Virus record (IMG/VR): IMGVR_UViG_3300046167_000543 | Span: 1-61,602 of that record | Source of the DNA: a virus | Strand: one strand, 5' to 3' | DNA length: 61,602 nucleotides | Program-made: the position numbers and the translations under genes | The notes under the pieces: model-generated | What the model was told of the DNA's origin: nothing | The model's database searches: none | What the model saw: only the letters and a program-made list of their open reading frames with translations | Part shown: in pieces, positions 1-59,446 of the stretch | Layout: every line of letters starts with the position of its first letter | How positions within the stretch are numbered: position 1 is the first letter of the stretch

Positions 1-137
1 TTATCTAACTTAGCTTGCAGTCTAGCTTTTTCTTTAGCAGCTGCTCTAGCTCTTCTTTTAGCTGAAGACGCGCCAAACAAACCACCTAAAAGACTACCAC
101 CAGCAGATATTAAACCAGCTGTTACTACTCCTGCCAT
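1..137 (-). CDS. Internal virion protein, N-terminal part (gene continues at 61602)
   Basis: First 45 codons of a protein cut by the window edge. It starts at the ATG at 137 with a small/hydrophobic Ala-Gly-rich N terminus (MAGVVTAGLISAGGSLLGG), then a Lys/Arg/Ala-rich stretch. Joining base 1 to base 61602 keeps the frame and reads into the ORF ending at 61065, giving 224 residues. Small proteins with a Gly/Ala-rich start and a Gln/Ala-rich helical body are typical internal or ejection proteins of podovirus-like phages. That role is inferred from the family look and the position beside the giant virion protein. The start overlaps the end of the upstream cupin-like gene by 13 nt. Confidence 0.7.
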   Translation of the reverse strand, partial: MAGVVTAGLISAGGSLLGGLFGASSAKRRARAAAKEKARLQAKLD

Positions 138-583
138 AATTTTTCTTTTTTATTATATTCTTCTATAGTTATAGAGTACAAAGACTCTTCTATTTTTTTT
201 ATTTCTCTTGTGTTCGTAGGGTTTTTATGTATGTTTATGAACACACAATCTTCTTTACAAACTATAAATCTTTTAGCTCCTTTTATAGATTTTTCATAGC
301 AAGGTGCTATATGCTCAACAGTTTCTCCGTTTGTTGTAACTAATATTTTACCAGATAATAAAAACCAAAAATGATCTGTATGATGTATAGCACTTATAAC
401 AAAAGAATTTTTTTTCATTTGCATTTTTCTCATGTACAAACCATCAGAAAAATCATGTGATATAGGTATAAAATCGTTATTCACAAGCTCTTTACCGTTT
501 CCATGTATATGCTCAATGTGGTTGTTTTTTATAAATATATTTTGTAAAGCCTCTAATTTTTGTTTAAAATTATCTAATTCCAT
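125..583 (-). CDS. Cupin-like protein in the virion operon
   Basis: 152 residues. The middle resembles a cupin barrel: a His-rich strand with H67, H68 and H71, then FWFLLSGKILV (about 72-82), then a second half ending with H119. The pattern fits the metal-binding cupin motif H-x3-H...G, but the second cupin motif is weak and no substrate can be named. It sits between the tail/stabilisation genes and the internal virion protein. Its start overlaps the stop of the upstream gene by 1 nt, so it is translationally coupled in the late operon. It could be a virion-associated small-molecule or receptor-binding accessory rather than an enzyme. Confidence 0.55.
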   Translation of the reverse strand: MELDNFKQKLEALQNIFIKNNHIEHIHGNGKELVNNDFIPISHDFSDGLYMRKMQMKKNSFVISAIHHTDHFWFLLSGKILVTTNGETVEHIAPCYEKSIKGAKRFIVCKEDCVFINIHKNPTNTREIKKIEESLYSITIEEYNKKEKLWQE

Positions 584-1989
584 TAATAACTTGATTCTAC
601 ATACTGTGAAGACACGGCGAACAATTCCCTTGTCTTACCTCCAGCTCCAGCTACTTGCGTAGAGCTATCTGTACTTATAGTTACAGTTGCATAGTAACCT
701 TTTACACCCGTCATGTCATCTCCAAAAACAACCTCACCTTTTGTGGGCTGACTGCTATTAACTAAGTTGGCAAAGTATTTTCCTTCTTTGTTATAGAAAC
801 CAGCGTAGTATTGTATACCGTTATCTGTGTAAGCACCTTCGTCATAGCTATAAACTAAGTTTGAAGTATCATTTAATTCAAAGCTTCTAGCAGCGTTAAA
901 ACTGGAAACTTCCCATCCTGTAGACCCTTCGTAGTTAACTGTTTTAAATACTTTAGATAAACTAACTTGGGGGTTAAATACAAACGAAATTAATGAATCA
1001 GAATAAACCCCATAAAATATAGACCTATCGTTATTTTGAAGTGTTTCATTGTTATGACGCCATAACTGACCATCTTTAACGCTAAAATAATTGCTTTGCA
1101 CGCTGAAAGTTTGTTCAGGCTTATATGTATAAAAACTAGTCCAACCTCTAACAGACTCATCAAAAGCTAAAGTTTGGTATGTGTTTACAACATTAGAACC
1201 TTGCAGACTTAATACATATTGTTTAGTATAGATATCCCAAGCGCCAATAGCTTTTCCATTAACAGCTACAGTATCTAAATTTTTAAACTCATCTCTAAAA
1301 TAATCTATCATACCATAGTTAGATATCTCTGTAAGACCATCTTGAGACAAACGCATTACAGCATTTCTATTTTTATCTGTGAAGTATTTTCTATAACCAT
1401 ATACAGCAAAGCTCTCTGGGTTTTTACTAATACCGAAGTTACCAGCATAAGGTACTATCTGACCTATAACTAGGTTAAGCGTACTAACAGCAGATCCTTG
1501 TCCTTCAGCAGAGTATATAGCGTCTTTATCTATTAAAGCTCTACTAACTTTATTCTCTTGGAATATGACAAGGTTTGTGTCTTCAGCATATAGTTTTTGT
1601 ATACTACCATTTGCAGGATCTACAGATCTAGTTATATCTTCACCTACGCTAAATACATTAGTATCATTAACACCTGTTCTAGAATTAAACACACCAGAGT
1701 ATATCATACTGTTGGTTCTAAAAGAAGCGTTGGGTTCTGTTTCTACTAAATACGCTTTAACACCTAAATCAACAATAACGTTATTATAACCTCCTCGTAT
1801 TCTTGCTTCTTCAATAGCCCAGCTATCTGCTTGCACAGCATTAGAAACTTGAGGATAAGCACCCGCTATACCAGTTGGAACACCGGTAGAACCATTCCAG
1901 ACTGGTGGTGTGGTATCATCAGCATTTTGTGGTGCTGTCTTCTTTAATAAAAAAGAGTTAAAATATTTTACTTCTACTATTGCTGCCAT
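583..1989 (-). CDS. Virion structural / tail protein
   Basis: 468 residues, almost entirely predicted beta by eye, with evenly spaced aromatic and Gly-Asn turns as in beta-propeller or tail-hub proteins. There is no signal peptide, membrane segment or recognisable catalytic motif. It lies 3 nt downstream of the 1429-residue tail protein and is probably a partner of it in the tail hub, nozzle or stabilisation complex. The function is inferred from position and composition. I recall similar paired proteins in marine podovirus-like phages, without an experimentally assigned role. Confidence 0.55.
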   Translation of the reverse strand: MAAIVEVKYFNSFLLKKTAPQNADDTTPPVWNGSTGVPTGIAGAYPQVSNAVQADSWAIEEARIRGGYNNVIVDLGVKAYLVETEPNASFRTNSMIYSGVFNSRTGVNDTNVFSVGEDITRSVDPANGSIQKLYAEDTNLVIFQENKVSRALIDKDAIYSAEGQGSAVSTLNLVIGQIVPYAGNFGISKNPESFAVYGYRKYFTDKNRNAVMRLSQDGLTEISNYGMIDYFRDEFKNLDTVAVNGKAIGAWDIYTKQYVLSLQGSNVVNTYQTLAFDESVRGWTSFYTYKPEQTFSVQSNYFSVKDGQLWRHNNETLQNNDRSIFYGVYSDSLISFVFNPQVSLSKVFKTVNYEGSTGWEVSSFNAARSFELNDTSNLVYSYDEGAYTDNGIQYYAGFYNKEGKYFANLVNSSQPTKGEVVFGDDMTGVKGYYATVTISTDSSTQVAGAGGKTRELFAVSSQYVESSY

Positions 1990-1992: not shown

Positions 1993-4900
1993 TTAAGTAT
2001 ATAAACAACGTGTTACAGTTCCAGTTCTTACAGCAGATGTTGTGAATGTAGCTGTATAAGCGCCTTGATTGGTATATTCAGGATTACTAACATCTGTGCT
2101 AGATGTATTTATAAGTTGCATTCTTCTAAATCTTTTTACTGCTTGACTTGTAAATGTAGCTTCGTTAACTAAATTAATATCAGTATAAAGCTGTGTTACG
2201 TACTTAGCAAACGGCTCTGCGGCATAGTAATTAATACCTGTAGATGTAAATGTAGAGCTACAAGTGCTGTTGTTGGCTATTTGATACCTGTAAACACCCG
2301 GGTTAGTACCGTAATCAGGCGCTATATTTGATTCAGGCGCGCTAAAATCATGCACATACACCTTGCTTGTTTTTGTAGTTAAAGGCGTGTTAGGACCACT
2401 AGGACTATTACAGCCAAATCTTTGTTCTAACTCATACGTGCCTGTTTTAGAAAAGAAACCAAACTGTTCCCAAGGGACTTGCCCAATAGATCTACCAACG
2501 TCAAGTCCACCACCACTAAGATTTCCAAGTATTATTCTATATTCTCCATTTGTATTAAACGCAAATACTTGACCTGAATAGGCCGGATCATATGTACCAG
2601 TAGTGCTAGGTGTTCTTCTAACAAGATGAAGACCTTGCGCGAAGTTTTGTGGATCATAATTGCTTGTGTTAGAGATTAAACCTCTATCTGTTCCACCAGG
2701 ATTAAAATCCCAATCCCAAGTACTTGTCGTAGCGCTAGCGTCTAAAGTAGTGTTTGAAATGTCTACAGCTGTTTGCCAGCTAGAGCTTGAATCAGCTCTA
2801 TACTGTATAGCATATCTAGTGTTTAAATGAGGAACTTTATCATCTGCTCTACTAGTAAGTCTTGGTATTAAATTATTTGTGTTTATACCTTCTACCCATA
2901 CGTAAAAAGTACCTCCTGTAGTAAGACCACTACTAAAAGTTTGATTAGTGAAAGTACCACTACCACCTTGAGGCGCTACGTTTGGCTGACAAACATCTCT
3001 CTGTAGAGTTGTATTTGTAGATGTTGGGGCTTGGAAACCAAATAGAAAGTCTCTTGCTGTTATGCCAGATCCACCGTCTAAATAATTAGGTATATTAGCT
3101 GTAAGGTTTGTAGTGTTGTTAGCAAACCAAAGCGCTACACCATCTCCATCGTTTATTGTTTTACCGCCATTAATGTTAAAATCTGAATCTACAGCTGGTT
3201 CAGTAAAGTTAACTATAAAAGTATTTGACACACATAAGCCTCCAGCGTCACAAGTCTGCAAAGTAAATTGTCCAGTTCCTATTGCCGCGGCAGATGTGTT
3301 TATAACTCTAGTACCGTTATTAGTTAAACTAAAAATACCAGCAGGTGACTGAGCTGTTATAGTGTGTGTTATATCATCTGTAGATTGGCCGCCAGAAGGA
3401 TTTGAGCCGTTAACAGCATTTATTGTAGATATAATTATTTCAGTTCCTTTTGTAACATTTATAGGGCTAGTATTTGAAATGCTTGGAGCTATATTTAATA
3501 ATTGACCTTGTTTAGTTATATTAGGATCTGAATCATTAACTCTAAAAGTAAATGTATATACATATCCATTTGGATTATCGTAATAAAAATAAGCTCCACT
3601 AGCTGTTGTTATGTCATAGGTATTAGCTGTACCACCAGTAGTAAATGTAAATTTAGAAGTTACATCGTTTCCAAATTGATCAAAAACACTTTCAAGCGTT
3701 GCAGACGAAGGTGTTATTTGAGCACCAAGATTATTTACAAAATAAAAATCATTAACAATAACAGTTCCAGGTGCATCTGCTTCATCTAAAGTAAAATTCC
3801 AAGCGTCAATACCAGTAGCATCTGTATTGCCACCACTGGAACTAATAGCTGTATTAAGTTCTGATAAAAGACCAGATGTAGCTGTTTCCCAAAATATATC
3901 TAATCTAGATATTGTTGGTAACGTTTCTAAAACATTTAAGTTTTCAAACTTCTCATACACTGTATTAGTATTAGCGTAACCAGCGTTTACAATACCAAAT
4001 TGACCTGCTGGTGTTTGTGAAGTAACAAACTCTGCTATAAAAGGATTTGATTCAGATCTAAAAAAAGAATAATAAGGACTGTTGGTAGAAGTAACAGGTA
4101 TAACGTCGTTAGCTCCAGCTTTAAATTGCAAAACATCAAAAGCATCAAATAAATCTTCAATTTGATTTACAGTAAAAGATTTTCTACCTGGAAAATATTG
4201 TTCGTTACCAACATTGCTAAATTCTATATTAGTGTTAACAACTCTACCAAAAAGTCTAACAGAACTTCTAAACTGTTTATCTTGAGCTCCAACTTCTGTT
4301 AAATCTCTAGGTACTTTATTTATATTGTCATTCAACAATGTTATAAATGTAGCGTTTTGATCTAATGGGTTTGTTGGTGTTGTAACTGGTGGGTTTCCAT
4401 TTGTCCAATATGGCTGACCTTTCATAGCGCCAGCTGTGTATACGTTATAATAATCTTGCTCAACTTGTTTTACTACAATCTTATAACTATACCAACCAAG
4501 TGGTTTATATTCTGTACTACTGGTATCACCATTATATAAACCAGGTATACCGATAGATTCATTTTTATCAAATCCAACTCCTGTAAGAATACTATTAAAA
4601 GAAACTTTTAATGAATCTCCAGCAAAAGTTATTGAATCACTACTAGCGTTATAAGGCAAATAAACAGTATCAGCTCCAAAGCCAGTACCGCTAGATTCGT
4701 TGGTATTACTAGATAATACAGTTGTAGACTGTCTACCATATCTATCTGCTAAAACTATTCCAACTTGATAATTTCTGTTTTGTTTTAAAGTATGGTTTGG
4801 ATATTCTATTCTTGATTTAGCGTTTCCATATGTAGAGCTACTAGTTAATTTTTCAGTAACACCTATTTGGTAATCAATACCAGAAGGTGGCGTATGTTTA

Positions 4901-6282
4901 TTTTGAAAATTACTATAAACAATTCTATTACTAATAACCTCTTGACCAAAAGCTTTTACTGGAATTTTATCGTAAACCCTTGTTATTTCATCAGAAGGTA
5001 AAGTTTTAAAAGGTTTAGTAGATAAATAATTATATTCAAGAACTGTATCTGTACCTGACAAGGTATCAACTTGTACAGTATCAACAACTTGAACAGCTAA
5101 CCCATCTGATTCTTTATACAATATATCTATTTCAGTAATTAAATACTTAGAAGATAAATTAGCTTTTGTATCAGGTAATGGTATTTGCAAACCTATCTGA
5201 GTAACTTTATTTTCCATAAACTCTACAACTGTACTTGTAAAAGTTTGGCGTTCATCACCTTCAATAAAATAACCATCTTGTTTAGGTATAAAAGCAACTT
5301 GCGTAAATGGAGCTAGTATAGAATATTCACCGTCTACAAATTTAAATCTATAACTAAATCTTACAAATTTATCTTCTAAATATTGAGGATCTCCAGAAAA
5401 ATCTGGATTATAATATGGATTTAAAGTAGTTCCGTCTGGTAAAAATTCACTACTTACGTCTTGCATTGTTGTCTGTGTAGCTGCGAGGGTAAAACTTAAT
5501 ATTTCTAAAGCAGATATAGAGTTAGCTTGATTAAACGTTACAACTCCTGTGCTTGGAACAAAGTTAACTACAGTAGTGTTAGCAGCTACACCTGTACCGG
5601 TAACTGTAGCACCAACAAGAATATTACCAGTGGTAGAAGTTATTATAGCTGTTGTTGAATTTGATGTGGTAAGAGTTACAACACCGGTTCCAGTAACTTC
5701 TTCTTGTATTAACTCAATAGGTTTATAAGGATTATACTTAGATACAGATATTTGATCTTCAGTAGTATAATAAGTAGGAGTAGTTAATCTTTGAGGATTT
5801 GCTAAATCAACGTTTATTTTTCTAGGTTGATTTCTATTGTCTGTAAAGAATAATAAATTTTCTAATAAGTTTACACCTATAATAGGTCTATCTTTAGAAA
5901 AATTTAAAAAAGCTCCTTCAACTAATTTTGTTACAATATCTCCTTTTATATTATAAGAAAAAATACAATTTTTAGCTGATGGGTTATATGTTGATTGTCC
6001 TAAAGGTCTCGGATCTTCTTCATCTGTAAAAAATAAATATACAGTATTGTTAAATTCGTCAACAAAATAACCTATACATTCATCTACATCATAACCAGCT
6101 ATAGTTGTAAAGTTAACAACAATTGAGTTGCCAAGTACATTTTCTAACGCGCCGACATCATCACCTTCTGACTTACTAACCTGTATGTTTACAGCGTTGC
6201 GATATTCACCTTGTGGTATAAGTCTAGCATCAAGGTCTTTGTTCATCTTTGATTTGATGAACGCGTTTTTAACTTCAGCCAT
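1993..6282 (-). CDS. Large tail protein (stabilisation/tail-hub type)
   Basis: 1429 residues. The N terminus (MAEVKNAFIKSKMNKDLD, then a region rich in EYRNAVNIQVS-like motifs and GALENVLGN) resembles a family annotated as stabilisation or tail proteins in Bacteroidota and uncultured marine phages. This is recalled similarity. The long middle is Thr/Ser/Asn-rich. The C-terminal third contains Ig/cadherin-like beta segments (around residues 940-1080, with repeated Thr/Ile-rich strands), suited to surface binding. It sits 6 nt after the connector/ring protein gene. The most likely place is the distal tail or tail hub, contacting the cell surface. Confidence 0.6.
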   Translation of the reverse strand: MAEVKNAFIKSKMNKDLDARLIPQGEYRNAVNIQVSKSEGDDVGALENVLGNSIVVNFTTIAGYDVDECIGYFVDEFNNTVYLFFTDEEDPRPLGQSTYNPSAKNCIFSYNIKGDIVTKLVEGAFLNFSKDRPIIGVNLLENLLFFTDNRNQPRKINVDLANPQRLTTPTYYTTEDQISVSKYNPYKPIELIQEEVTGTGVVTLTTSNSTTAIITSTTGNILVGATVTGTGVAANTTVVNFVPSTGVVTFNQANSISALEILSFTLAATQTTMQDVSSEFLPDGTTLNPYYNPDFSGDPQYLEDKFVRFSYRFKFVDGEYSILAPFTQVAFIPKQDGYFIEGDERQTFTSTVVEFMENKVTQIGLQIPLPDTKANLSSKYLITEIDILYKESDGLAVQVVDTVQVDTLSGTDTVLEYNYLSTKPFKTLPSDEITRVYDKIPVKAFGQEVISNRIVYSNFQNKHTPPSGIDYQIGVTEKLTSSSTYGNAKSRIEYPNHTLKQNRNYQVGIVLADRYGRQSTTVLSSNTNESSGTGFGADTVYLPYNASSDSITFAGDSLKVSFNSILTGVGFDKNESIGIPGLYNGDTSSTEYKPLGWYSYKIVVKQVEQDYYNVYTAGAMKGQPYWTNGNPPVTTPTNPLDQNATFITLLNDNINKVPRDLTEVGAQDKQFRSSVRLFGRVVNTNIEFSNVGNEQYFPGRKSFTVNQIEDLFDAFDVLQFKAGANDVIPVTSTNSPYYSFFRSESNPFIAEFVTSQTPAGQFGIVNAGYANTNTVYEKFENLNVLETLPTISRLDIFWETATSGLLSELNTAISSSGGNTDATGIDAWNFTLDEADAPGTVIVNDFYFVNNLGAQITPSSATLESVFDQFGNDVTSKFTFTTGGTANTYDITTASGAYFYYDNPNGYVYTFTFRVNDSDPNITKQGQLLNIAPSISNTSPINVTKGTEIIISTINAVNGSNPSGGQSTDDITHTITAQSPAGIFSLTNNGTRVINTSAAAIGTGQFTLQTCDAGGLCVSNTFIVNFTEPAVDSDFNINGGKTINDGDGVALWFANNTTNLTANIPNYLDGGSGITARDFLFGFQAPTSTNTTLQRDVCQPNVAPQGGSGTFTNQTFSSGLTTGGTFYVWVEGINTNNLIPRLTSRADDKVPHLNTRYAIQYRADSSSSWQTAVDISNTTLDASATTSTWDWDFNPGGTDRGLISNTSNYDPQNFAQGLHLVRRTPSTTGTYDPAYSGQVFAFNTNGEYRIILGNLSGGGLDVGRSIGQVPWEQFGFFSKTGTYELEQRFGCNSPSGPNTPLTTKTSKVYVHDFSAPESNIAPDYGTNPGVYRYQIANNSTCSSTFTSTGINYYAAEPFAKYVTQLYTDINLVNEATFTSQAVKRFRRMQLINTSSTDVSNPEYTNQGAYTATFTTSAVRTGTVTRCLYT

Positions 6283-11944: not shown

Positions 11945-14362
11945 TCAACGAGGCTCAAACTGTTCAAGTCCAAATCCTCCTAGTGAGTCAAATCCAGATG
12001 ACTCAAAGTTTTTAGGTAGTTCATCGTTTTGACGCTGTGATATCATTTCTGATTGTTGCGTGCCTATAATTCTAGCACGCTCGTCTTTACGATCTTCTAT
12101 TTCTTTTTCTTTAGATTTTTCAACATCAGCTCTAGCTCTTGCTAACTGTATATTGTAATTAAATTCTTCAGCCATTAACTCTCTTTTTATTTGAGCTTCT
12201 GTCTGCATGCGTTGTATTTCAAACTGTGATTTAGCTTGTTCAATACTAACTTTTTCTTGTGTAAGCGCTTGCTGTTTTTGAACTTCAGCCATAGCTGCTT
12301 GTTCGGCAGATTGAGCATTTGCTTGTGCTTGCGCCTGTATATTAGCTTGTTGTGCTTCTTGATCTCTTTCTCTTTTTTTCTTTTGACTTAGTTTAAGATA
12401 TTGATTAGCAAGTTTTATATTACTTATCTGCCTAATATCAATAGCATCTTCTAAGCCAATTTGCCCTGCTTGTAAAGCTATTTGTATATTCTTTTCAAGC
12501 ATTTGCTTTTCTTCTTCTTCAGGTTCAAGTTCTAAAAATATACCAAACTCATGCATGTTTAATTTACCGACCTCTGCAAGTGTTGCCACGTTGAATGAGT
12601 TTATAGAATTTAATAAAGCTTCTTTTAAAAGAGGAAAACTTAAAGCATCAGCAATTCTTAAGCTAATATTTTCTGCGGAACTAACTGTTAAATACATTAA
12701 AGACTGTAGTATGTGCTTGGTAGCTGTATTAGAAGCCGCCGCTGCTAGCTTTTGTAAACCTACTAATGAATCTTTAGCTGGTTGGCTACCGTCCCTAGCT
12801 TCGTTAAGTCCTGTCACGTCTCTAATCATTTGTAAATAATACTGATATGTTTGTATAAGAGCTTGTATTTTAGCCATACTAGACGATGTTTGCAATTCTT
12901 GTATTGGTACTTTACCTCTATTAGGATCACCATCCTGTGTCAAACTTCTACCGACAATACTACCAGTTTGAAAGTACATATTCAAAGCTTCTTGAGCATT
13001 ATAACTTGTACCATTACCAAGGTCTACCTCTGCTAAACCATCCACGTCTACAAACACACCATCGGGCACTGTTCGCGCTAGCACTTGTTGTATTTTTAAA
13101 TGTGTAAGCTGTATCATGTCCGCAAACCCAATACATTTGCTAACTAAACTTTCTATACGACCTTTATACATCCGCGGAGCAGATATATTGTAGTTCATTT
13201 TAACTTTAGTCTGGTTGCTATACGGTCTTGTCATGTTTTCAGACAATTCCCACTTAAGCATTTTTTCGTGTCCAAGTATTTTAGCGCCACTATATAAAAC
13301 TTCTATAGCTCTATGAACTCTATCAAAGTTATCGCTTTCAGGTGGATCAAACGTGTCTGGCTTTTCTAAAGCTTTTTCAAGACCTTGATCTGTTTGTTTT
13401 ATTTTAAATACTTGATTTTCATAAGTTTTATATTCAAAATACAACACTTGAATTTGACTTTGCTGATCGTCTTGAGCGTAATAATTACGAGTGTAATTTA
13501 CATTACCCGGATATTTTTGTATTTCTTCTAAATCAGAATCTGTTAAATAAGGAAATTGTTTTTTAATCTCTTCAAGAGTAACGCTTTTAACTTCACCTAC
13601 GTAATATATATCTTCAAAATTAGGGTCTTCAGTATATGAATAAACTAAATTAGCAGGATCTACATAATTAACAGTAATACCATTAGCTAAATTAAAATCT
13701 GTTTTAACAGCTGATATACCTATAACGGTTAAATCATAAGCCAAGCGTTTTTTTACTTCTTCGTATTTATTATAATCAAAAACATTAGATATAGCTTCTT
13801 CTTCAGCTATTTCAATAGCTTGCTTGTAATTCAATTGAATATATAAATCTAGTTCTTCTTTACTCTCAGGAAGATTTGTTGGATCTGATGTATAAGATAA
13901 ATCAGCTCCTAAATTCTGTTGTATAGATTCCAAAAGAGGTTTAGCGTTCATATCTCTAAGTATATTCGCTGTGTAATCAGTTCTTTCTTTTAAAGCATAA
14001 GGATCTGACGCAAAAGATTTTATTTCATAACCCTTGTCTGTCATACCATTTACAACAATATCTACAAACTTAGATAATACAGCTACTGGTTTCCAGTCTA
14101 AATTTAAATAAGATAAATCACCATTAATAGATAATTCATCTTTGTACTTTGCTACAGATTGTTCGCCTCTAGCATATAGTCTTAATCTATGAAAATCTTG
14201 CCAACTATTACCAAAACGGCCTCCGGATCCTAAACCTCTATCGCCTCTAAACCATTCGTTTTCTATAGCTCTTCCTACAGCTAAGCCATAATCATATGTC
14301 TTTTTCTCTGCGTCTGGTACTACCTGACTTGGGAAAGAACTATTAACATTAGTGTAAATCAT
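11945..14362 (-). CDS. Portal protein
   Basis: 805 residues, directly abutting the terminase gene. The N-terminal region (about 40-110) has the ARGEQ...NGDLSYLNLDWKPV-type signature I associate with portals of marine podovirus-like phages. A helical crown is followed by a Gln/Ala/Glu-rich coiled C terminus (about 650-790). It forms the dodecameric DNA entry ring of the head and is the docking site for terminase. It is somewhat larger than T7-type portals because of the long C-terminal coiled region. Confidence 0.8.
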   Translation of the reverse strand: MIYTNVNSSFPSQVVPDAEKKTYDYGLAVGRAIENEWFRGDRGLGSGGRFGNSWQDFHRLRLYARGEQSVAKYKDELSINGDLSYLNLDWKPVAVLSKFVDIVVNGMTDKGYEIKSFASDPYALKERTDYTANILRDMNAKPLLESIQQNLGADLSYTSDPTNLPESKEELDLYIQLNYKQAIEIAEEEAISNVFDYNKYEEVKKRLAYDLTVIGISAVKTDFNLANGITVNYVDPANLVYSYTEDPNFEDIYYVGEVKSVTLEEIKKQFPYLTDSDLEEIQKYPGNVNYTRNYYAQDDQQSQIQVLYFEYKTYENQVFKIKQTDQGLEKALEKPDTFDPPESDNFDRVHRAIEVLYSGAKILGHEKMLKWELSENMTRPYSNQTKVKMNYNISAPRMYKGRIESLVSKCIGFADMIQLTHLKIQQVLARTVPDGVFVDVDGLAEVDLGNGTSYNAQEALNMYFQTGSIVGRSLTQDGDPNRGKVPIQELQTSSSMAKIQALIQTYQYYLQMIRDVTGLNEARDGSQPAKDSLVGLQKLAAAASNTATKHILQSLMYLTVSSAENISLRIADALSFPLLKEALLNSINSFNVATLAEVGKLNMHEFGIFLELEPEEEEKQMLEKNIQIALQAGQIGLEDAIDIRQISNIKLANQYLKLSQKKKRERDQEAQQANIQAQAQANAQSAEQAAMAEVQKQQALTQEKVSIEQAKSQFEIQRMQTEAQIKRELMAEEFNYNIQLARARADVEKSKEKEIEDRKDERARIIGTQQSEMISQRQNDELPKNFESSGFDSLGGFGLEQFEPR

Positions 14363-30466: not shown

Positions 30467-30519
30467 ATTTTCTAAATTCTTTTATATGATATATACTTAC
30501 AGGAAAAAGTGAGAGTTTA

Positions 30520-30589
30520 CAAGTGGTGTATATAGTGACAATAGCCCCTTACTCTATATACTTATAAGCCTAATGTCACCCCCTACTTG
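30520..30589. repeat. Long imperfect dyad (operator/attenuator candidate)
   Basis: Outer arms CAAGT / ACTTG enclose GTGACAATAG (30535-30544), paired with CTAATGTCAC (30570-30579) at 9 of 10 positions. An alternative inner pairing is GTATATAG (30528-30535) with CTATATAC (30554-30561), perfect over 8 bp. Two mutually exclusive stems suggest an RNA switch or an operator. Confidence 0.6.
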
Positions 30590-30638
30590 AAAAATCACGT
30601 TACAAATATAGGGGTATAGTGTTACCACTTAAAATATT

Positions 30639-30735
30639 GATTATCAACGATTTACAAAAACGATTTTTATTTTACCGGGCCCCCCAACTTTTCTACACTT
30701 TTTGTATATATCCAGCAGATTATCAATGTTTTACG
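30639..30735. repeat. Origin-like direct repeats
   Basis: GATTATCAACGATTTAC (30639-30655) recurs as GATTATCAATGTTTTAC (30718-30734), 14 of 17 identical, in an AT-rich stretch. The shared TTATCAA core resembles a degenerate DnaA-box type site. An origin role is inferred only. Confidence 0.4.
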
Positions 30736-30786
30736 TAGATATTTTAGACTTTTTACGCACTAACTAATTTTACTTATTTATATTTT

Positions 30787-30817
30787 ACAGACAAAATACA
30801 AGTCAATTTGGATAATA
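30787..30817 (+). promoter_or_regulatory. Early promoter element P1
   Basis: ACAGACAAAATAC, 10-nt spacer, GGATAATA (30810-30817). One of seven copies, all on the plus strand with an identical 10-nt spacer; preceded by TT as in the others. It lies 26 nt before the first gene of the rightward arm. Confidence 0.7.
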
Positions 30818-30843
30818 ATAATGTAAATAAAAAACTACTAATT

Positions 30844-31017
30844 ATGTCAAATATTTTAAATGTCTTCAATGTAAAAACTAAATTTCAAATTAACTATTGT
30901 CACAATGAAAATTTATATGACTTTACAATATTAAATTCAAGTAATAATGAAATACTTTTCAATAATAAATATAAAAATATAATTGAAGTTAATAAAATAA
31001 TTCAACAATACAAATAA
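30844..31017 (+). CDS. First early protein, hypothetical
   Basis: 57 residues from the ATG at 30844; an upstream TTG at 30808 would place the start inside the promoter element, so the ATG is preferred. Asn/Lys/Ile-rich and very AT-biased. Preceded by P1. No motif. Confidence 0.55.
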   Translation: MSNILNVFNVKTKFQINYCHNENLYDFTILNSSNNEILFNNKYKNIIEVNKIIQQYK

Positions 31018-31020
31018 TTT

Positions 31021-31051
31021 ACAAACAAAATACAAACTATTTTGGATAATA
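31021..31051 (+). promoter_or_regulatory. Early promoter element P2
   Basis: ACAAACAAAATAC, 10-nt spacer, GGATAATA (31044-31051). It lies right after the stop of the first gene and has no ORF before the next promoter copy, so it would drive a short non-coding RNA. Confidence 0.7.
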
Positions 31052-31149
31052 TAAATGTAACTAACTAACAAACTAATTAGTTATACACAAAGAAGTGTAG
31101 TGTAATAACTACTAAACAAAAACTAGTACTAAATAAAACTACACTCTTT
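31052..31149 (+). ncRNA. Candidate short RNA between promoters P2 and P3
   Basis: About 100 nt with no ORF, bounded by P2 and P3. It contains the palindrome AACTAATTAGTT (31070-31081 region) and a stem AGTGTAGT / ACTACACT (about 31096-31103 with 31138-31145) closing a 35-nt loop. It could be a small regulatory RNA or an attenuating leader. No family recognised. Confidence 0.4.
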
Positions 31150-31180
31150 ACAAACAAAATACGTTATCAACTGGATAATA
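31150..31180 (+). promoter_or_regulatory. Early promoter element P3
   Basis: ACAAACAAAATAC, 10-nt spacer, GGATAATA (31173-31180), 44 nt before the next gene's ATG at 31225. Confidence 0.7.
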
Positions 31181-31224
31181 ATATAAATACTAAATAACAA
31201 ATATAAATACTTAAATTCATAACT

Positions 31225-31455: not shown

Positions 31456-31493
31456 CTTGAAACAAACTGCTTAAATTCAGTATAACTAATGTC

Positions 31494-31742: not shown

Positions 31743-31748
31743 TTAACT

Positions 31749-50704: not shown

Positions 50705-53700
50705 TTACTTTATTTTAGATTTTTTATATTTACTTTTTCTTGGTTGCGGTTTGTTGCTAGGTTTTTCCTCATCAATACCAATTTCCCAGTCTTGCCAACC
50801 ACCTAATAACGTCAAGCGTTCCCAAGTCTCTAAGTCTTGTGACGTAGCTGTAACCACGTTGTTGGTTTTCTTTATAGCTCTATCAAGAGGTACATTAGTA
50901 AGCGCCGCTATAACATTAGCACTTGCTAAGTAAGCTGGGTTATCTAAGCTCCAACCTTTTTCTTTCATTTCGTCTTTATCCCATTGGTAAGATCTCGCTG
51001 CTTGATTTATACGCGATAGCTTAGCAGATATAGGTGGAGATAGTTTAGTAATTTCATAACCTACTTTTTCAAGCTTAGGTCGTTCCTTTTCCATCTCGTT
51101 TATAATACGGATTATAGCGTTTTTACCTACTGAAACTACAGCACCGCCTAATCCCATACCTCTTAAAAGCGAGTCCATCATACCATTAGCTATACTAACA
51201 TATTTTTTCTTTTGCTCGTCTGTATCTTCTTCATCATCATCAAAAGCAAACGCAAACAAAGCTTGTTGCAACGCGTTAAACAATAAGTTCTGCGCTACAC
51301 CGTAGTATATAATCTTACTTATATTAGTCTTAGCATCGCCTCGGCCATTCTTAAGATCGCTAGCAGCTTTTTTTATAAGTCTAGCATACTGAGCTGGTGT
51401 GTTAGCAAAAGCTAATACAAGACGTCCTAATGGACCTGCTTGTTGCATTGATATTCTATCAGGCCTTGATGACTGTTGCGACTCTTCTGCTGTCTCTCTA
51501 AAGTCTACAAATGCCTGAGCTTCAGCCTCAGCATCTGTCATACCTTGTTTTTTCAAGGACTTAATACGGTTACGATAAAACGCTGAGCCACCTGATGCTA
51601 TAGCAAAGCTATCTGCTATTTGTGTAGGTGTGAAACCAAACTCAAGTAGTTTATTTATAACGCCTTTAGCACCACCTTTCTTAGCCATATCTGCAATATC
51701 AGCTTCACTTACGTTGATACGTAAACCACCACGACGTTCTTTCAAGAAGTCAGAGTTCATAAGCGTCATAAAGTCAGACCAGTATTGTTTCTGGTTTGCA
51801 AAAGCTTTACCCGCAGCTAGTATATTGTTATCAGTGAAGTTAACAAAGTTAATACTAGATATAGTTTGTAGTATTGCTGATCTTGTATTAAAGAACATTA
51901 TAGTACCAATACTACCTGTGACCCAGTCAGTAAATCTACCTGTAAGCGTATCGCCTTGGAAGTTTCTGTTACGACCAGACTTCATACGCTGCAGCATATT
52001 CTCCATAGCTAAGCGATATGGTTTACCGTACGCAGCTTCAAGTTTATTTAAATTCTTTTCAGAGAATATAACATCTGCATTAGTTTGCCACTGCTCTAAG
52101 TACTTAGCTCGCTTAGTGGTGTTAAGACCTTCAAGCATATCAGTTGTAATAGTACCAGCTGGCCAACCTTCTTTAGGCGCCGCGTATTGATCACCTTTTT
52201 GTATAGCAACTAGTTGATCAGCAAAAATCTGTAGCTCAGCATTGTCGCTTACGTACTTACTAAGATCAGCTTGATCTTTCTTACTTATCCCAGGTATAGA
52301 CATACCTTGCTTATCCCATATGTACACGCGTACAGCTTGCTCTCTAGTAAACGGTTCACCTGGAACTTTCTTACGTAGATTTTTAGGTACTATTTCTAAT
52401 TGTTTCTTTAACAATTTGTAGTCGTTCATCATAGATATACGAGCTGATGACAATTCATTCATAGCTCTAGCATATGGGTTTAACAAATGAGTTTTATACC
52501 ATGCCATCTGTTGGTCACCTAATTTACCTTTACCAAGCGTAGCGTATAATAAACCTGTAAAGTCTTCAGCAGATGGTGGTATAAAGAAGTTTAATCTACC
52601 TTTACCAGCCCCAGCTACTTCAGCTTTTACTCTACCATATTCTTTTTCAGATGCTATACCTGTTTTGTTTTCTAGTATATCATTAAAACCTCTATCAAGA
52701 TCAGCTTTTTTACTAAACTTAATTTTAGCTTGCTGTACTTTAGATTTTACATCAAATACATTTAATGCGTCTTGTACTGCTTTAACGTTTTTATACGCAT
52801 CATCTACAAAGAAAAAGTCGTTATAACCTTCAGCAGCTTTACCCGTCATCCAACGTGCTTTAGCCTCTGCTTTACCATCACCAAGCCCTACAATATTTTC
52901 AATAGGCAGGTTAACGCCAAGCGCGTCCATAAATTCTTTGATAGGACCAGCAGCATTAGCAGGTCTAGCTGTAAGTATGAATACATCTTCAGCACCTCTT
53001 GCTTTAACTATATTTTCTATAGCTTTAAATACAGGACCTCTTTTACCGTCAATCACTTTGCTAAACTCCGAGAAATCAAACTGAGCTCCTTGAGCTTCTA
53101 ACTCTCCAGCTCTTGCAGCAAACTGTGTAGCGTTAAGCTTACCAGTTGTACCATCAGGCATCTCGTATAGCACATTGCTGTTAGATCTAGCTAATGTATC
53201 ATCAAAGTCAAATACACGTATCTTTTTAACAGGTGCTTCAGGGTTTCTAGCGTTAGCCATAGCTTTGTCAGCATTACCTAAGTTATCAAGTATTTCTTGA
53301 TTAGGTACTTGCTTACTAAACTTAATAGTGTTATTTTGATTGTTATTACCAACACCAGCTTTAGGTATGGATTTTAATTTAGCAAATTCATTTAATCTAT
53401 CTTGCCCTGTTTTAGCAGTTATATCCCCGCTCAATACTTCTTTTAATATTTTATTTTGCTCAGATACAGTTTCAACATTTACATCACTAGGTTTTAAAGC
53501 AACACCTAGTTCTTCAGCCATAGTTTGACCTGTTTCGTAATTAACAATACTATTAAGATCGATACCAGCTTCAATAAATCTAATAGCAGGGTTGTCTGCT
53601 ATAGTTGTTCCAATAGGTAGCGTAGCATCTAACTTAGCATCGTCTAATTTTTGATCGTCAGCTTTAGAAAGTTTAGTTTGATAATAGTTCTTTTTAATAT

Positions 53701-56700
53701 CAGTCATTATTTGACTAGTATTATTTGTAGCAAAACCATATATGATTGAAGCGCCAACCACGGATGCTGGAGGATTGTGTTCTTCTCTAACCTTATCACC
53801 TGTTCTCTGCTTAGGTGAGGTACCGTATTGTGGATTTTTAGAAAAATACCTAAACGGTGCTGCTATCTTAATAAGACCAGTCGTTGCTTGGTAGCCTTGA
53901 GCTATAATCATAGCTGCTAATTCTTTAGGCATACCATTTTGTATAGCTTTATCTAATTGACTTACAACGTCGTCAAGCACTTGCATGTTAATTTTTGCTT
54001 GAGCTCTTCCTTTGTCTGTATCAACATCTTTAAGATTAACCCTTTTAGCTTTAGGTTTTTGATCTCCTTTTGAGTTTGATTTAGCTTTATCTAAAGCTCT
54101 TTTATAAGCTGGATCATTGACGCCGTAATACAATCTACCTCTATTTGGCAAAAGATTAGTAATGTTTTTTGGAGGAACAACTTTTTTACCAACAGTACCG
54201 TCAGTTTTAATTAAACGTTCTCCTTTAACCCAATCTCCGTTATCTAACGCGTACCAGTAATCACCTTCTTTTGCTTTAGTTCCAGTTCTTTCTAAAAAAG
54301 CGTTTAGTTTTTTAGCTTCAGGTGTTAGCTTTCCTTTTTTTGTTTTTCCTACTTGAGTTCTAACAGCGCCACCAAAAGCAAAAGATCCTGCTAAAAATAC
54401 ATCTTCAGTAAGTTTATATTTTTCTATAGCGTCTTCAAAAGAAGTTTGTATTTCAGCTCTTTTATTATCAGGAACGCTAGCACTATCCATGCCAACTATT
54501 TTTAGTACAGCATTAATATCTCTAGCTTGTGTAACATCTATCAACGCTTTTTTACTAAACATAAGTCTAGATCTACCAGCTCTAGTATCTGCTCTCTGCT
54601 GTTTAGGAGCACTCTCTGGCAACGATTTGTCTGCAACTGATAAAGCAACTTGACCACCACGCATACGCGCCCAAGCGGCAAGTTTTGTAGCGTAGTTTCT
54701 TCTTTCGTTTTTACTAAGCTCGTTTAAATCAACGTCAATACCAGCCCACTCTCTGGCTTTTGATACAGCTTGCGGACTTATTTTACCTTGTCTATTAGGT
54801 CTAAACTCTGGTTTTAATCTATATACTTTAGTTTGAGTAGTCTTACCTTTGCTTCTACCAGACTTGTTAGTAATAGCCATTGCTCTAACAGCTCTATCTG
54901 TACTTTCAGAAGCTGGATCTGTGTAAGGTTCGTAAAAGAAATCTAATACTGTTTGACCTATTTTCATAGATCGACCTCTAACTTCTGGACTTACTGGTAC
55001 TCTTTCACCTTGCTCTGTAATAGTCGACTCCATTGTTGTGACGTTAAACTCAGGCATAGTCTTTATAGACCTTTCAGTCTCTTGAGCGTTAGAAAAGTCT
55101 TGTTGTATTCTACCAAGCTCTGAAGTTTCAGGTTTGTTTTTAGAATAGGTTAAGTTATCTACTTTTTCTATTTTATCTTCAGGAACATTATATATTTCCG
55201 ATGCAAATTTAGAGCGATTGTTATTTAATATTTCTACAGATGAATCACCTTCATTTATTTTTATTTCTTTTTCTAACGTTGGTAAAACTTTTTTAACTCT
55301 AGGACTTTTTCTTACATCAATTAGTTTAGATCTACCTGATTCTTCAGCTTGAGCTCTTTCCTCTATTTCAAAAGCTTGTTCAGCTGTTTCGTCCGCAAAT
55401 TGAGTTTGCTCTACAGCTTGTGTTATAGTAGATTGACCTGTACGTCTAGTGTAGTCTTCTACAATTTTAGGACCAACACGTCTACCTAATATATTACCTA
55501 CATAAGTACTAAGCTGCATCGGCTTTCCAGTCACTCTATTCGTCGGTGTGTAATTTTTCATTACACTTTCAAATTGATTGTTTATATCGCTTATTACGTT
55601 TTCATCAACTTGAAGTGGAACACCTCTTTGTTTAGCCCATCTTTGCAGCGCGTCTATACCAAGTCTTTGGTATTGATCTTGTAAATTAGAAATGTCTTGC
55701 TCAGACATAGATTCTTTATTGTTCTTATATTGACTAGCTAAATCGTTAACAGCTTTAGAGGCTTTGATTGTAGTTTCATCTTCCTCATCTACATCGGCAA
55801 TAGCAACACCAGAAATAGCTTGTTTTCTAAAAGAATCTATATAGTTATAAACATCTGAGCCTGTGTTAAATTGTACAAACACCTCTGATTGATCTCCAAA
55901 AATTTTATTAGTTATGTTATTAAACAAACCTTTAAAAGAATTTAATACGTTATTAGGATTGAAATCGCTTTTGTTTAATATACCTAAGTTAACAGCGTCG
56001 CTAAGAACTTGCATAAATTCCTCATAATCACCATCATTTTCGTATTGAGCTAAACGTTTTTTTATAGCGTCGTAATCATTTTGAGTTATAGACTCTTGTT
56101 CTAGCTTATCATCTAACATATTGATGGCTTCTGTCACTGCTTTTTTATTTGTTAAAGCTTCAGCAGAATCACCTGTAAATTTTATTTTTTTATTTTTATT
56201 TCTAAGATGACTAACCTCATGTAAAGCTGTAACAGCAGCAAATTTACCATTAGAGTTAGTAATAGATTGTAATATACTTTTTTTAGACTCATTAACATCT
56301 ACAACAACAACATTATCAAAAGCGTATGCGTTTTGACTACCACTTGTGATTAATTCAAAAGCATCTGCGGTTTGTACATCTCCATTATCATCTGTATAAC
56401 TTATAGTTCTACCTTTAAATTTTTCAAGATCAGCAGCGTCTTCTTCAAGGAAATAAATTTCATTTCCTTTACCAACCATAGCGTCAGCCATAATATTAGA
56501 AGATTCAAACAAGTTTAAATGAAATATAGTTTCAGGATTTGTTTTAATATCAAGATTTTGCTTGTCAATAAACTCTTGATTACGCTTACTTCTAACACTA
56601 AGTATATCGTTTTTACGATTTTTCAAAACCACTGACTGCTCTTGTAAGTTTTGTAAAGATTTTATTTCGCTTTCTGTAGGAAGTCCAGTTGTAGAATTTG

Positions 56701-59446
56701 CTAATGTAGTTGCGTCCCTTGTTATTTTTTTTATTGCAACTTCTATTTCACCAATTTCTTTTATTTGTGCTGGCGTAAGTGTGTTTAATTTACTTATGTT
56801 AACAATGTCTTGTAACCCTAGGTCTAATAATATTTCTTTACTTTTCTTTATACGATCTGACGTTGGTAGATCTTGAGCTTCTATAAGTTGTCTAGTCAAA
56901 GATTGATACTTGCTTAACTCACTATTGCTTGTAACGTGCTCTTTAATAATAGCGTTAGCATTGTTTATTGTTTTACCGCTGAGCATTAGCAAAGTAGCAA
57001 AAGAAGTATTAGCAAAAAGATCTTCGTTTATTTCTTCAAAAACATTTACATTTTCTCCAAGTATAATATTACGAACAATACCTTGATCTAGTATGCTTTC
57101 TAAAGATTCTTGGGCATTTTCTTTTATTAAGCCACCACCCACAACACCTCCTAATTCTAAAGTCTGTGGAATCCAAGCTTTAGAAACAGCGTCTTTATCT
57201 AATAAAAGTCTACCGCTTTTTAATTCTTTTATAAATTTATTTTTACCTATGTTTTTAGCTACTCTATTAAAGTCATCAAAAAGTTTTAATGTTACTGCTT
57301 GCTCTGAATATTTTGTTATAAAACCAGTTACCAATCCACTAACTCCTGTTTGAAATGTAGATTTATTTAAACTATTTTCTAAAGAAACAATTTGATTTTC
57401 TAATTGACGTTTAACTATAGGATCTTTTGTTTTTTCTATTTCAGCTTTTAATCCTTCTATTTTTTTAGGATTAAACTTTTTAGCAATTTCTACACTTTGA
57501 ATAGTTTGGCTTCCGGTTTGTAATCCAAATAAATTACCAGAAACTTTAGCCATACCTTTACTTAAACCTTTGTTAAATGAAGCAGTTGCAACTCTTTGAG
57601 CTGCTGACATACCACTAGTAAATCCTTTTGCAACTAAACCTGTTACTAATTGTGGTCCAGCTATGGTTAACAGTGTAGGCGCCGCAGAAGCTGTTGAATC
57701 AGAAACAAAAGCCCAACCGCTAGCTTTACCTTTTCTAACTTCATCTACCGTTATTGGAGATGGTAGCGCTTGTATTTTTTCTTCTATAGCTTGATTGTAG
57801 TTTACAGCTGTACCTATTAAAGCATCAGCGCCTCTAACTAATTTGGAATCTAATACATTTTGAAAATCAAATCCACTAGCGCCTGATTGTGTTAGTTCTG
57901 CTAAACCAGATGTTAAAAAAGCAGCTGCCCTAGCTGTGTAAGCCCCTGCAATAGCAGCGCTACCGCCGAAAGATTGTTCTATATTTAAAGCTGTTCTAGT
58001 GCTAAACCTATAGTCTTTGTTTAATGCTACAAATGTTTGATCTAAATCTTTTAAATCATCATACTTTTGAAGATTAACATTATATTGTTGCTGCATTTTA
58101 AGAATTTGAACTCCTTGATCAGCAAGTTTTAAATTTTCTTCTTGTAAAGCTTGGGCTTCTGGGCCTGTTGCTATAGCATTTCTTTCGTTTACTTTTTGCT
58201 GTAACTTATTGTAAATATTATTACCAGTTTCTTGACCAGTACTAGTAACAGGGTAAGCAAAATCTTGCAAACGTTTTTTGTAGGTTTCTATATCTTTGTC
58301 TAAAACCTGTATAGCGTCATTTATTTTTTCAATTTTTGGAGCTAAAACATTAAAATCATTATTATATTGTTCTTGCCTTGCTACCAAGGTAGAACCTCCT
58401 ACTTTTAAATCGTTTTTAACTTTATCTAAATCTTGTCCTTCTGGAGTTTCTTTTAATAATACACTTGTAAAATCTTGAACGTCTTCATTATAGTTATTAG
58501 CAACTAATTCTTTATTTCTATTTTCTATAGTATATAAAGCTTGTTGATTTGCAGTTGGTATAGATTCTTTTTGATAATCATTTAAAGGGTTTAATGTACC
58601 TTTGTCTTGATATTGATTATACAAAGCAACGTAATCTTTTGCGCCTTGGTCATTTAAATTGGCAGCAATAGCAGCGTCATAAATTCTCTGTTCTTTTTCT
58701 TCTTTAGTAGCAGCCCTTCTGTTTATTTGAACAGTTCCACCTGGAGTAACAGTGGTAGTACCTAAGTCTACAGGAGCATCGATCCAACCAGTACCACCAC
58801 CCGGGGTTTTTTCAAAATAAACTTCATATGTTTTATTAGTTATCTCTTGCTCTGGTATGTTAGCGTTAGCATTAGCTATGTTATCTATTAAAGATCTAGC
58901 TCCAGATTCTTCACCTACATAACCTTCGTATTGAGCACGTTGAACATCTGCTTTTGTAAGTTCGCCTTTAGCAAAAGCATCTTTATATTTATTTTGATTT
59001 TTTAATCTATTATCTAGCTTAGACCATTCTTCTCTAGTAATAGGCGTGTTATCTCCAAAGCCAGTTACAACAACTTCTTCAAGATCTATAGTTTGAGAAG
59101 AAATTAATTTATCTTCAAACCTGCTAAGCCTACGTCTTGCCAATATAGCATCTCGAGATGTATCTAATTCACCGTATTCAGCTACGTCTTTTTGTAACTC
59201 CAATAAAGTATTTGCCGAGTCTGATTCCGTACTCTCGGGTGCTTCCCCGGTTTCCGGTGTTGCAGTTGCACCCTTTGCCACAGCACCGTTTGTCTTTCCC
59301 TCGGTTGGGGTTGTTTGTATTTCGTCTGTAACTTCTACAGTTTCAAGTCCATGCTTGTTTACATACTCGTCTACAGACAGTTGCTCATTACTTGCAGCTT
59401 GAGTAACTTCATCTAACGTGTATTCAAATCCTTGATACTTAAACAT
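50705..59446 (-). CDS. Giant virion/ejection protein with HExxH and HAD domains
   Basis: 2913 residues, the largest gene. The N-terminal 600 residues are Gln/Asn/Thr-rich and helical. A hydrophobic Ala/Gly/Val-rich segment lies near 580-610. HEVSH at 1076-1080 is a zinc-peptidase motif. A HAD-like phosphatase domain spans about 2075-2230 with FDFDDT (D2080, D2082), LTARP and FFVDDAYKN. Large polyvalent-type segments with NTPAQYARLIKKA near 2700 end the protein. It probably forms an internal core ejected into the cell to breach the envelope and modify host components. Confidence 0.8.
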   Translation of the reverse strand: MFKYQGFEYTLDEVTQAASNEQLSVDEYVNKHGLETVEVTDEIQTTPTEGKTNGAVAKGATATPETGEAPESTESDSANTLLELQKDVAEYGELDTSRDAILARRRLSRFEDKLISSQTIDLEEVVVTGFGDNTPITREEWSKLDNRLKNQNKYKDAFAKGELTKADVQRAQYEGYVGEESGARSLIDNIANANANIPEQEITNKTYEVYFEKTPGGGTGWIDAPVDLGTTTVTPGGTVQINRRAATKEEKEQRIYDAAIAANLNDQGAKDYVALYNQYQDKGTLNPLNDYQKESIPTANQQALYTIENRNKELVANNYNEDVQDFTSVLLKETPEGQDLDKVKNDLKVGGSTLVARQEQYNNDFNVLAPKIEKINDAIQVLDKDIETYKKRLQDFAYPVTSTGQETGNNIYNKLQQKVNERNAIATGPEAQALQEENLKLADQGVQILKMQQQYNVNLQKYDDLKDLDQTFVALNKDYRFSTRTALNIEQSFGGSAAIAGAYTARAAAFLTSGLAELTQSGASGFDFQNVLDSKLVRGADALIGTAVNYNQAIEEKIQALPSPITVDEVRKGKASGWAFVSDSTASAAPTLLTIAGPQLVTGLVAKGFTSGMSAAQRVATASFNKGLSKGMAKVSGNLFGLQTGSQTIQSVEIAKKFNPKKIEGLKAEIEKTKDPIVKRQLENQIVSLENSLNKSTFQTGVSGLVTGFITKYSEQAVTLKLFDDFNRVAKNIGKNKFIKELKSGRLLLDKDAVSKAWIPQTLELGGVVGGGLIKENAQESLESILDQGIVRNIILGENVNVFEEINEDLFANTSFATLLMLSGKTINNANAIIKEHVTSNSELSKYQSLTRQLIEAQDLPTSDRIKKSKEILLDLGLQDIVNISKLNTLTPAQIKEIGEIEVAIKKITRDATTLANSTTGLPTESEIKSLQNLQEQSVVLKNRKNDILSVRSKRNQEFIDKQNLDIKTNPETIFHLNLFESSNIMADAMVGKGNEIYFLEEDAADLEKFKGRTISYTDDNGDVQTADAFELITSGSQNAYAFDNVVVVDVNESKKSILQSITNSNGKFAAVTALHEVSHLRNKNKKIKFTGDSAEALTNKKAVTEAINMLDDKLEQESITQNDYDAIKKRLAQYENDGDYEEFMQVLSDAVNLGILNKSDFNPNNVLNSFKGLFNNITNKIFGDQSEVFVQFNTGSDVYNYIDSFRKQAISGVAIADVDEEDETTIKASKAVNDLASQYKNNKESMSEQDISNLQDQYQRLGIDALQRWAKQRGVPLQVDENVISDINNQFESVMKNYTPTNRVTGKPMQLSTYVGNILGRRVGPKIVEDYTRRTGQSTITQAVEQTQFADETAEQAFEIEERAQAEESGRSKLIDVRKSPRVKKVLPTLEKEIKINEGDSSVEILNNNRSKFASEIYNVPEDKIEKVDNLTYSKNKPETSELGRIQQDFSNAQETERSIKTMPEFNVTTMESTITEQGERVPVSPEVRGRSMKIGQTVLDFFYEPYTDPASESTDRAVRAMAITNKSGRSKGKTTQTKVYRLKPEFRPNRQGKISPQAVSKAREWAGIDVDLNELSKNERRNYATKLAAWARMRGGQVALSVADKSLPESAPKQQRADTRAGRSRLMFSKKALIDVTQARDINAVLKIVGMDSASVPDNKRAEIQTSFEDAIEKYKLTEDVFLAGSFAFGGAVRTQVGKTKKGKLTPEAKKLNAFLERTGTKAKEGDYWYALDNGDWVKGERLIKTDGTVGKKVVPPKNITNLLPNRGRLYYGVNDPAYKRALDKAKSNSKGDQKPKAKRVNLKDVDTDKGRAQAKINMQVLDDVVSQLDKAIQNGMPKELAAMIIAQGYQATTGLIKIAAPFRYFSKNPQYGTSPKQRTGDKVREEHNPPASVVGASIIYGFATNNTSQIMTDIKKNYYQTKLSKADDQKLDDAKLDATLPIGTTIADNPAIRFIEAGIDLNSIVNYETGQTMAEELGVALKPSDVNVETVSEQNKILKEVLSGDITAKTGQDRLNEFAKLKSIPKAGVGNNNQNNTIKFSKQVPNQEILDNLGNADKAMANARNPEAPVKKIRVFDFDDTLARSNSNVLYEMPDGTTGKLNATQFAARAGELEAQGAQFDFSEFSKVIDGKRGPVFKAIENIVKARGAEDVFILTARPANAAGPIKEFMDALGVNLPIENIVGLGDGKAEAKARWMTGKAAEGYNDFFFVDDAYKNVKAVQDALNVFDVKSKVQQAKIKFSKKADLDRGFNDILENKTGIASEKEYGRVKAEVAGAGKGRLNFFIPPSAEDFTGLLYATLGKGKLGDQQMAWYKTHLLNPYARAMNELSSARISMMNDYKLLKKQLEIVPKNLRKKVPGEPFTREQAVRVYIWDKQGMSIPGISKKDQADLSKYVSDNAELQIFADQLVAIQKGDQYAAPKEGWPAGTITTDMLEGLNTTKRAKYLEQWQTNADVIFSEKNLNKLEAAYGKPYRLAMENMLQRMKSGRNRNFQGDTLTGRFTDWVTGSIGTIMFFNTRSAILQTISSINFVNFTDNNILAAGKAFANQKQYWSDFMTLMNSDFLKERRGGLRINVSEADIADMAKKGGAKGVINKLLEFGFTPTQIADSFAIASGGSAFYRNRIKSLKKQGMTDAEAEAQAFVDFRETAEESQQSSRPDRISMQQAGPLGRLVLAFANTPAQYARLIKKAASDLKNGRGDAKTNISKIIYYGVAQNLLFNALQQALFAFAFDDDEEDTDEQKKKYVSIANGMMDSLLRGMGLGGAVVSVGKNAIIRIINEMEKERPKLEKVGYEITKLSPPISAKLSRINQAARSYQWDKDEMKEKGWSLDNPAYLASANVIAALTNVPLDRAIKKTNNVVTATSQDLETWERLTLLGGWQDWEIGIDEEKPSNKPQPRKSKYKKSKIK

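What the first reader, a model, noticed from the sequence alone, without database searches (positions are those of the whole stretch)
1..137. The window is one closed circle: a gene spans the two ends in frame
From ATG 137 the minus-strand ORF reads to base 1; continuing at base 61602 keeps the frame for 538 nt to the stop at 61065, joining two pieces into a 224-residue protein of one compositional type. The leftward operon also continues without a break in style. This implies a complete, circular or circularly permuted phage genome.
Basis: seen in the sequence. Interest (0 to 1): 0.75.

Follow-up and report, generated by a model that had tools for sequence, protein, structure and literature searches.

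The report
Complete, circularly closed marine phage genome
The two ends of this 61.6-kb sequence fit together exactly inside one ordinary virus-particle gene, so it is the complete genome of a bacterial virus cut open at an arbitrary place, which is useful to know but not unusual.

Summary
Joining base 1 to base 61602 on the minus strand gives a 675-nt gene for 224 residues. An in-frame join alone is weak evidence: 34.5% of false joins between two minus-strand genes of this window also stay open. Relatives settle it. All 80 of the 80 best matching viral contigs carry the gene uninterrupted across the joint, one over 537 ungapped nt at 95.5% identity. Searches with only the right half, or only an upstream gene, find the same arrangement: 80 of 80 and 69 of 69. 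Neighbouring genes match phi38:1, Elemovirus and circular record MW202828 (60,850 bp). Relatives without end overlap do not close this way: 0 of 12.

So the record is a complete, circularly closed assembly of a phi38:1/elemo-like podovirus genome, cut inside a virion-protein gene. It does not show that virion DNA is circular or circularly permuted: distant relative Gundel is annotated with 322-bp direct terminal repeats, which also assemble as a circle. Physical ends here are unknown. The finding is ordinary; a clade-wide promoter-like motif noticed on the way may be more interesting.

The parts
1..137 (-). 5' part of the 224-aa virion-protein gene: residues 1-45 and two bases of codon 46
   Evidence: translation of the joined ends; homologues
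61065..61602 (-). 3' part of the same gene: third base of codon 46 to the stop
   Evidence: translation; right-half search, 80 of 80 loci with an open, similar N-terminal extension
125..583 (-). 152-aa gene directly upstream, overlapping the ATG by 13 nt; short tail fibre / adhesin family
   Evidence: PHROGs phrog_12032, E 2.1e-20
583..1989 (-). 468-aa virion protein, second gene upstream of the joint
   Evidence: PHROGs phrog_14478; query of the independent upstream search
1993..6282 (-). 1429-aa virion protein
   Evidence: PHROGs phrog_14478; same place as the 1324-1551-aa proteins of relatives
11945..14362 (-). portal protein
   Evidence: PHROGs phrog_6547, E 6.2e-147; tblastn to 87 phage records
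14363..16567 (-). terminase large subunit (TerL)
   Evidence: PHROGs phrog_6681, E 2e-163; tblastn to 87 phage records
59458..60951 (-). 497-aa gene directly downstream of the joint
   Evidence: ORF; same place as phi38:1 gp100 and elemo gp19; no PHROGs match
50705..59446 (-). giant 2913-aa gene, same place as the giant structural proteins of relatives
   Evidence: ORF; order in relatives; tblastn hits by position in viral loci
30467..31224 (.). AT-rich gene-poor stretch between the two divergent gene arms; possible place of the physical ends and early promoters (inferred)
   Evidence: composition and ORFs; by analogy with the terminal repeat of Gundel

Best explanation
The window is the complete genome of an uncultured phi38:1/elemo-like podovirus (61,602 bp), closed as a circle during assembly and written out from an arbitrary point inside codon 46 of a 224-residue virion-protein gene. 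The gene is intact in the phage and lies in its usual place, after the tail/virion genes and before a ~500-aa and a giant protein. Shown: in-frame closure with no base missing or added relative to homologues, uninterrupted homologues, conserved gene order, matching genome size. Inferred: the circle arises because virion DNA carries redundant ends (short direct terminal repeats or headful redundancy), which collapse in assembly and let the DNA circularise in the cell. Also inferred: the protein is a minor internal or ejected virion protein, from its position and predicted all-helical make-up.
For: Exact join of 675 nt. 80 of 80 viral loci run through the joint; L001 537 columns, 95.5%, no gap. 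Unbiased searches with one side only: 80 of 80 (right half) and 69 of 69 (upstream gene; 11 of 80 dropped for short flanks). No gap opposite residues 41-51 in 69 of 69 distinct homologues. Same gene order in MW202828 (circular, 60,850 bp), Elemovirus (about 60 kb) and phi38:1 (circular). Profile match to phi38:1 gp99 over residues 1-219, E 7.7e-6; the three positional counterparts rank 1-3 of 23 proteins. Control: 0 of 12 relatives without end overlap close onto one homologous gene.
Against: No end overlap is left in the record, although several relatives keep one (5 of 17), so it must have been trimmed or never written; this cannot be checked without reads. IMG/VR end class and completeness for the record were not shown by the tool. 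Matches of the MW202828 and elemo counterparts are weak taken singly (E about 0.04), and named phages gave no tblastn hit to the joined protein.
Confidence: 0.96

Rival explanations
1. Physical form A: virion DNA is linear with short fixed direct terminal repeats, which the assembler collapsed into a circle; the real ends lie elsewhere, perhaps in the stretch 30.5-31.2 kb. This refines the best explanation and is compatible with it.
For: Gundel, whose TerL is 31% identical, has an annotated 322-bp terminal repeat between its two gene arms and is reported as 'short DTRs' and 'circularly closed' (PMC8776804, passages). The window has a similar gene-poor divergent stretch.
Against: Gundel is distant, its ends were predicted by PhageTerm and not verified by experiment, and no closer relative has tested ends. 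Retained overlaps in five relatives lie at different places.
Confidence: 0.5
2. Physical form B: headful packaging gives terminally redundant, circularly permuted virion DNA. Also compatible with the best explanation.
For: Circular assemblies with scattered cut points; MW202828 portal annotated as P22-like.
Against: Circular assemblies are cut anywhere whatever the packaging mode, so scattered cuts do not discriminate.
Confidence: 0.4
3. The record is a linear fragment, and the in-frame join is a coincidence with sequence missing between the ends.
For: About one in three false joins between minus-strand genes stays open, and there is no end overlap.
Against: Homologues run through the joint with no gap in 69 of 69 distinct sequences, and gene order is conserved on both sides.
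Confidence: 0.01
4. The record ends are true physical ends (for instance a cos site) lying inside the gene.
For: None direct.
Against: Relatives' contigs are cut at many other places, and all 80 relatives run through this point. The recurring elemo cut lies in another gene.
Confidence: 0.03

Closest known systems
Podoviridae sp. isolate ctfjg026 (Caudoviricetes sp., MW202828.1), 60,850 bp, circular record
   Same: Closest named record: TerL 63.8% and portal 51.3% identical; same gene order on both sides of the joint, GroEL, thymidylate synthase, circular topology
   Different: Counterpart of the joined gene is 302 aa and only weakly alike (E 0.043); giant gene 3859 aa against 2913; record cut elsewhere
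Elemovirus (Flavobacterium phages elemoA-F), about 60 kb
   Same: TerL 44.6%, portal 42.0%; same order with a 202-aa gene at the joint's place; records also cut inside a virion gene, there the giant one
   Different: Low protein identity; records labelled partial and linear; giant gene about 3694 aa
Cellulophaga phage phi38:1 (Pervagoviridae, Callevirus)
   Same: TerL 38.2%; order gp90-gp101; gp99, virion structural protein, is the counterpart of the joined gene (E 7.7e-6); circular record
   Different: 72.5 kb against 61.6 kb; giant gene 1691 aa
Tenacibaculum phage Gundel (Pachyviridae)
   Same: Related TerL (31.3%); circularly closed assembly
   Different: 78.8 kb; annotated 322-bp terminal repeats; none of five Gundel proteins tested matches the joined gene
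'Group 2' putative Flavobacteriaceae phage genomes of Nishimura et al. 2017 (PMC5332604)
   Same: Marine circular genomes with phi38:1-type structural proteins, 36 of them with GroEL (passages)
   Different: Not compared sequence by sequence here

Membership tests
Complete, circularly closed phage genome assembly | Ends join with no missing or extra sequence | tested here: met
   No gap opposite residues 41-51 in 69 of 69 distinct homologues; L001 537 columns ungapped
Complete, circularly closed phage genome assembly | Size and gene order agree with complete relatives | tested here: met
   61.6 kb against 60.85 kb (MW202828, circular) and about 60 kb (elemo); same order
Complete, circularly closed phage genome assembly | Overlapping ends or reads across the joint | tested here: not met
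   No end overlap in the record; reads are not available, so this half could not be tested. An overlap is usual for raw assembler output but is removed by trimming
phi38:1/elemo-like podovirus group (informal) | TerL and portal homology over most of the protein | tested here: met
   87 phage records, each covering at least 80% of the query, for both proteins
phi38:1/elemo-like podovirus group (informal) | TerL-portal-virion gene order ending in a giant protein | tested here: met
Pervagoviridae (phi38:1, Calle) | Genome-wide clustering with the family | not tested
   Only single proteins compared; TerL 38% identical. Not filed as a member
Short-DTR phage (as Gundel) | Fixed direct terminal repeat | not testable with these tools
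   Needs reads or virion DNA
Headful, circularly permuted phage | No fixed ends, terminal redundancy in virion DNA | not testable with these tools
   Needs reads or virion DNA; scattered cut points of relatives do not decide

The most novel reading that the evidence does not exclude
The phage belongs to an uncultured lineage of about 60-kb Bacteroidota podoviruses that share, besides the circular map, their own early-gene control: a 34-nt promoter element read only in the direction opposite to the virion genes. The closed map would then hold the whole switch region, and perhaps the physical ends, in one gene-poor stretch near 30.5-31.2 kb.
Probability: 0.3. Interest if true: 0.4.

Novelty: new member of a known kind. 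Interest (0 to 1): 0.15.

Why it matters
It lets the window be treated as a whole genome: gene counts, absent genes and skew can be read as properties of the virus, not of a fragment. It also shows that an in-frame join should be backed by homologues before a record is called complete: relatives without end overlap fail the same test (0 of 12).

Tried and rejected
Coincidence of an in-frame join: quantified and then excluded by homologues. True physical ends inside the gene: rejected, since the gene is intact in all relatives kept and contig cut points differ. tblastn of the joined protein in named phages found nothing at E up to 1, and PHROGs gave no family; Pfam gave three hits below their cut-offs, treated as chance. 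A profile of 70 sequences did reach phi38:1 gp99 by hhalign. A structure model of a homologue (L003) was made, but at mean pLDDT 64.6 it was not searched against structure libraries. A physical end could not be located: cut points of 17 relatives are scattered and only Gundel, of the records looked at, has annotated repeats. Some elemo starts recur, but they lie inside the giant gene and were not taken as physical ends.

The label 'MCP' in the script and the Bacteroidetes promoter consensus that I had in mind are recalled, not from a call. The 80 loci are not independent: several contigs carry identical sequence (69 distinct homologues of 80), and searches return overlapping sets of contigs. 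The tool keeps the best 80 only (of 146, 212 and 107 confirmed). PHROGs was run on 38 proteins, not on every ORF.

Full report
What was claimed and what is there. The minus-strand frame from ATG 137 continues from base 1 into base 61602 and ends at 61065: 675 nt, 224 residues, no ambiguous bases, no exact repeat at the ends. The left piece gives residues 1-45; codon 46 is split by the record ends.

How strong is the in-frame join alone. In 2675 random false joins of the window, 448 (16.7%) give a frame of at least 228 codons open on both sides; when both cuts lie in minus-strand genes, 950 of 2750 (34.5%) stay open.

Homologues across the joint. A scan of IMG/VR with the joined protein found 146 confirmed relatives among 182 candidates, of which the best 80 were kept. 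In 70 of 80 one match covers at least 10 residues on both sides of the joint; in the other 10 the match starts at residue 36 or 40, still before the joint. The closest, L001, aligns over 537 columns at 95.5% without a gap; L002 aligns over 10.7 kb at 80.8% through the joint. In 69 distinct homologues none has a gap opposite residues 41-51. To remove the bias of searching with the joined protein, I searched with the right-hand piece only: in all 80 loci kept the frame stays open upstream for at least 30 residues, and that stretch resembles residues 1-45 better than all 200 of its shuffles in 77 of 80; in the other 3, one shuffle reached it. I also searched with the second gene upstream: of 80 loci, 11 had too little DNA downstream and were dropped; in 69 of 69 the gene follows in one match across the joint.

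Gene order. In MW202828 (circular, 60,850 bp), Elemovirus and phi38:1 a run of TerL, portal, virion proteins, a 1324-1551-aa protein, a ~140-aa protein, a 200-302-aa protein, a 450-644-aa protein and a giant protein lies on one strand, with one or two extra genes in MW202828. In the window the same run is complete only if base 1 is joined to base 61602. The 200-aa gp99 of phi38:1, annotated as virion structural protein, matches the profile of the joined gene nearly end to end (hhalign E 7.7e-6, residues 1-219), and the MW202828 and elemo genes at the same place rank next (E 0.043 and 0.044), ahead of the 20 other proteins tested, the five from Gundel included. The last two are weak taken singly; their rank and full-length collinearity are what count.

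A control. Eighteen viral contigs with related TerL were looked at; the ends of 17 of them (54-68 kb, TerL 74-81% identical) were compared. Five have overlapping ends (77 and 127 nt exact; 216, 143 and 953 nt near-exact) and 12 do not. Joining the ends of the 12 never puts one homologous gene across the joint; in several the ends fall in different genes. Of the five with overlap, two cross within one gene. This test can miss cuts in intergenic or diverged DNA. So exact closure is not what a contig of this clade without end overlap ordinarily shows, and the window stands out as truly closed.

What it is. TerL, portal, GroEL, a GroES-family protein, an ATP-dependent DNA ligase, an Erf-like annealing protein, a primase/helicase, thymidylate synthase, a MazG-like protein, a sigma-factor-like protein and both ribonucleotide reductase subunits are recognisable. 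Named relatives infect Flavobacterium, Cellulophaga, Tenacibaculum and Maribacter, so a Bacteroidota host is likely (inferred). The group resembles the 'group 2' circular marine genomes of Nishimura et al. 2017 (PMC5332604; passages seen).

Physical form. A circular assembly shows only that the ends are redundant in the sample. Gundel, a distant relative, has an annotated 322-bp terminal repeat between its two gene arms and is listed as 'short DTRs' and 'circularly closed', with ends predicted by PhageTerm but not verified by experiment (PMC8776804; passages seen). The corresponding place in the window would be the AT-rich stretch 30,467-31,224; this is an analogy. Headful packaging remains possible. 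I put fixed repeats at 0.5 and headful at 0.4.

Role of the protein. Its position between tail-type and giant proteins, its counterpart gp99, and a predicted all-helical make-up (three long helices in a low-confidence model of L003, mean pLDDT 64.6) suggest a minor internal or ejected virion protein. This is inference.

Verdict. Observation confirmed; interpretation supported, with the caveat on physical form; ordinary in kind.

Noticed in passing
window 30784-35732, + strand (7 copies): Promoter-like motif TTTACAAACAAAATAC-N9-TGGATAATA: 7 copies with up to 3 mismatches, all on +, none in 100 shuffles. Its exact core occurs in 58 stretches of IMG/VR on 49 contigs, 46 of which carry a related TerL; in all 45 records that could be counted of those 46 it lies on the strand opposite to TerL. 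It looks like a clade-wide early promoter. One paper search showed nothing relevant.
   Followed up: partly
L003 / record G018 (129,537 bp): This contig is about two genome lengths and holds two TerL copies 97.2% alike about 63 kb apart, while the stretches around the joined gene are only 76-85% alike: probably two related phages joined in assembly.
   Followed up: partly
window 50705-59446: Giant 2913-aa protein with no Pfam hit and no tblastn match in named phages, only a weak polynucleotide-kinase-like stretch at residues 2065-2242 (phrog_415, E 1.3e-5).
   Followed up: no
window 1-61602: No DNA polymerase family was hit among the 38 proteins scanned against PHROGs, although primase/helicase, ligase, Erf-like protein, exonuclease and ribonucleotide reductase are present.
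   Followed up: no
window 31541-31597: Stretch that reads like the 3' half of a tRNA (T-arm-like sequence); neither ARAGORN nor Rfam reports it. The only tRNA called is tRNA-Gln at 35624-35697.
   Followed up: no
records G025, G031, G037, G046: In a few relatives TerL is in pieces or holds in-frame stops; sequencing errors and an inserted element were not told apart.
   Followed up: no
L282-L285 (elemo records MT497074.1, MT497085.1): Two groups of elemo isolates have the same length (60,073 bp) but starts 90 nt apart, both near or inside the start of the giant structural gene; the reason is not known.
   Followed up: no
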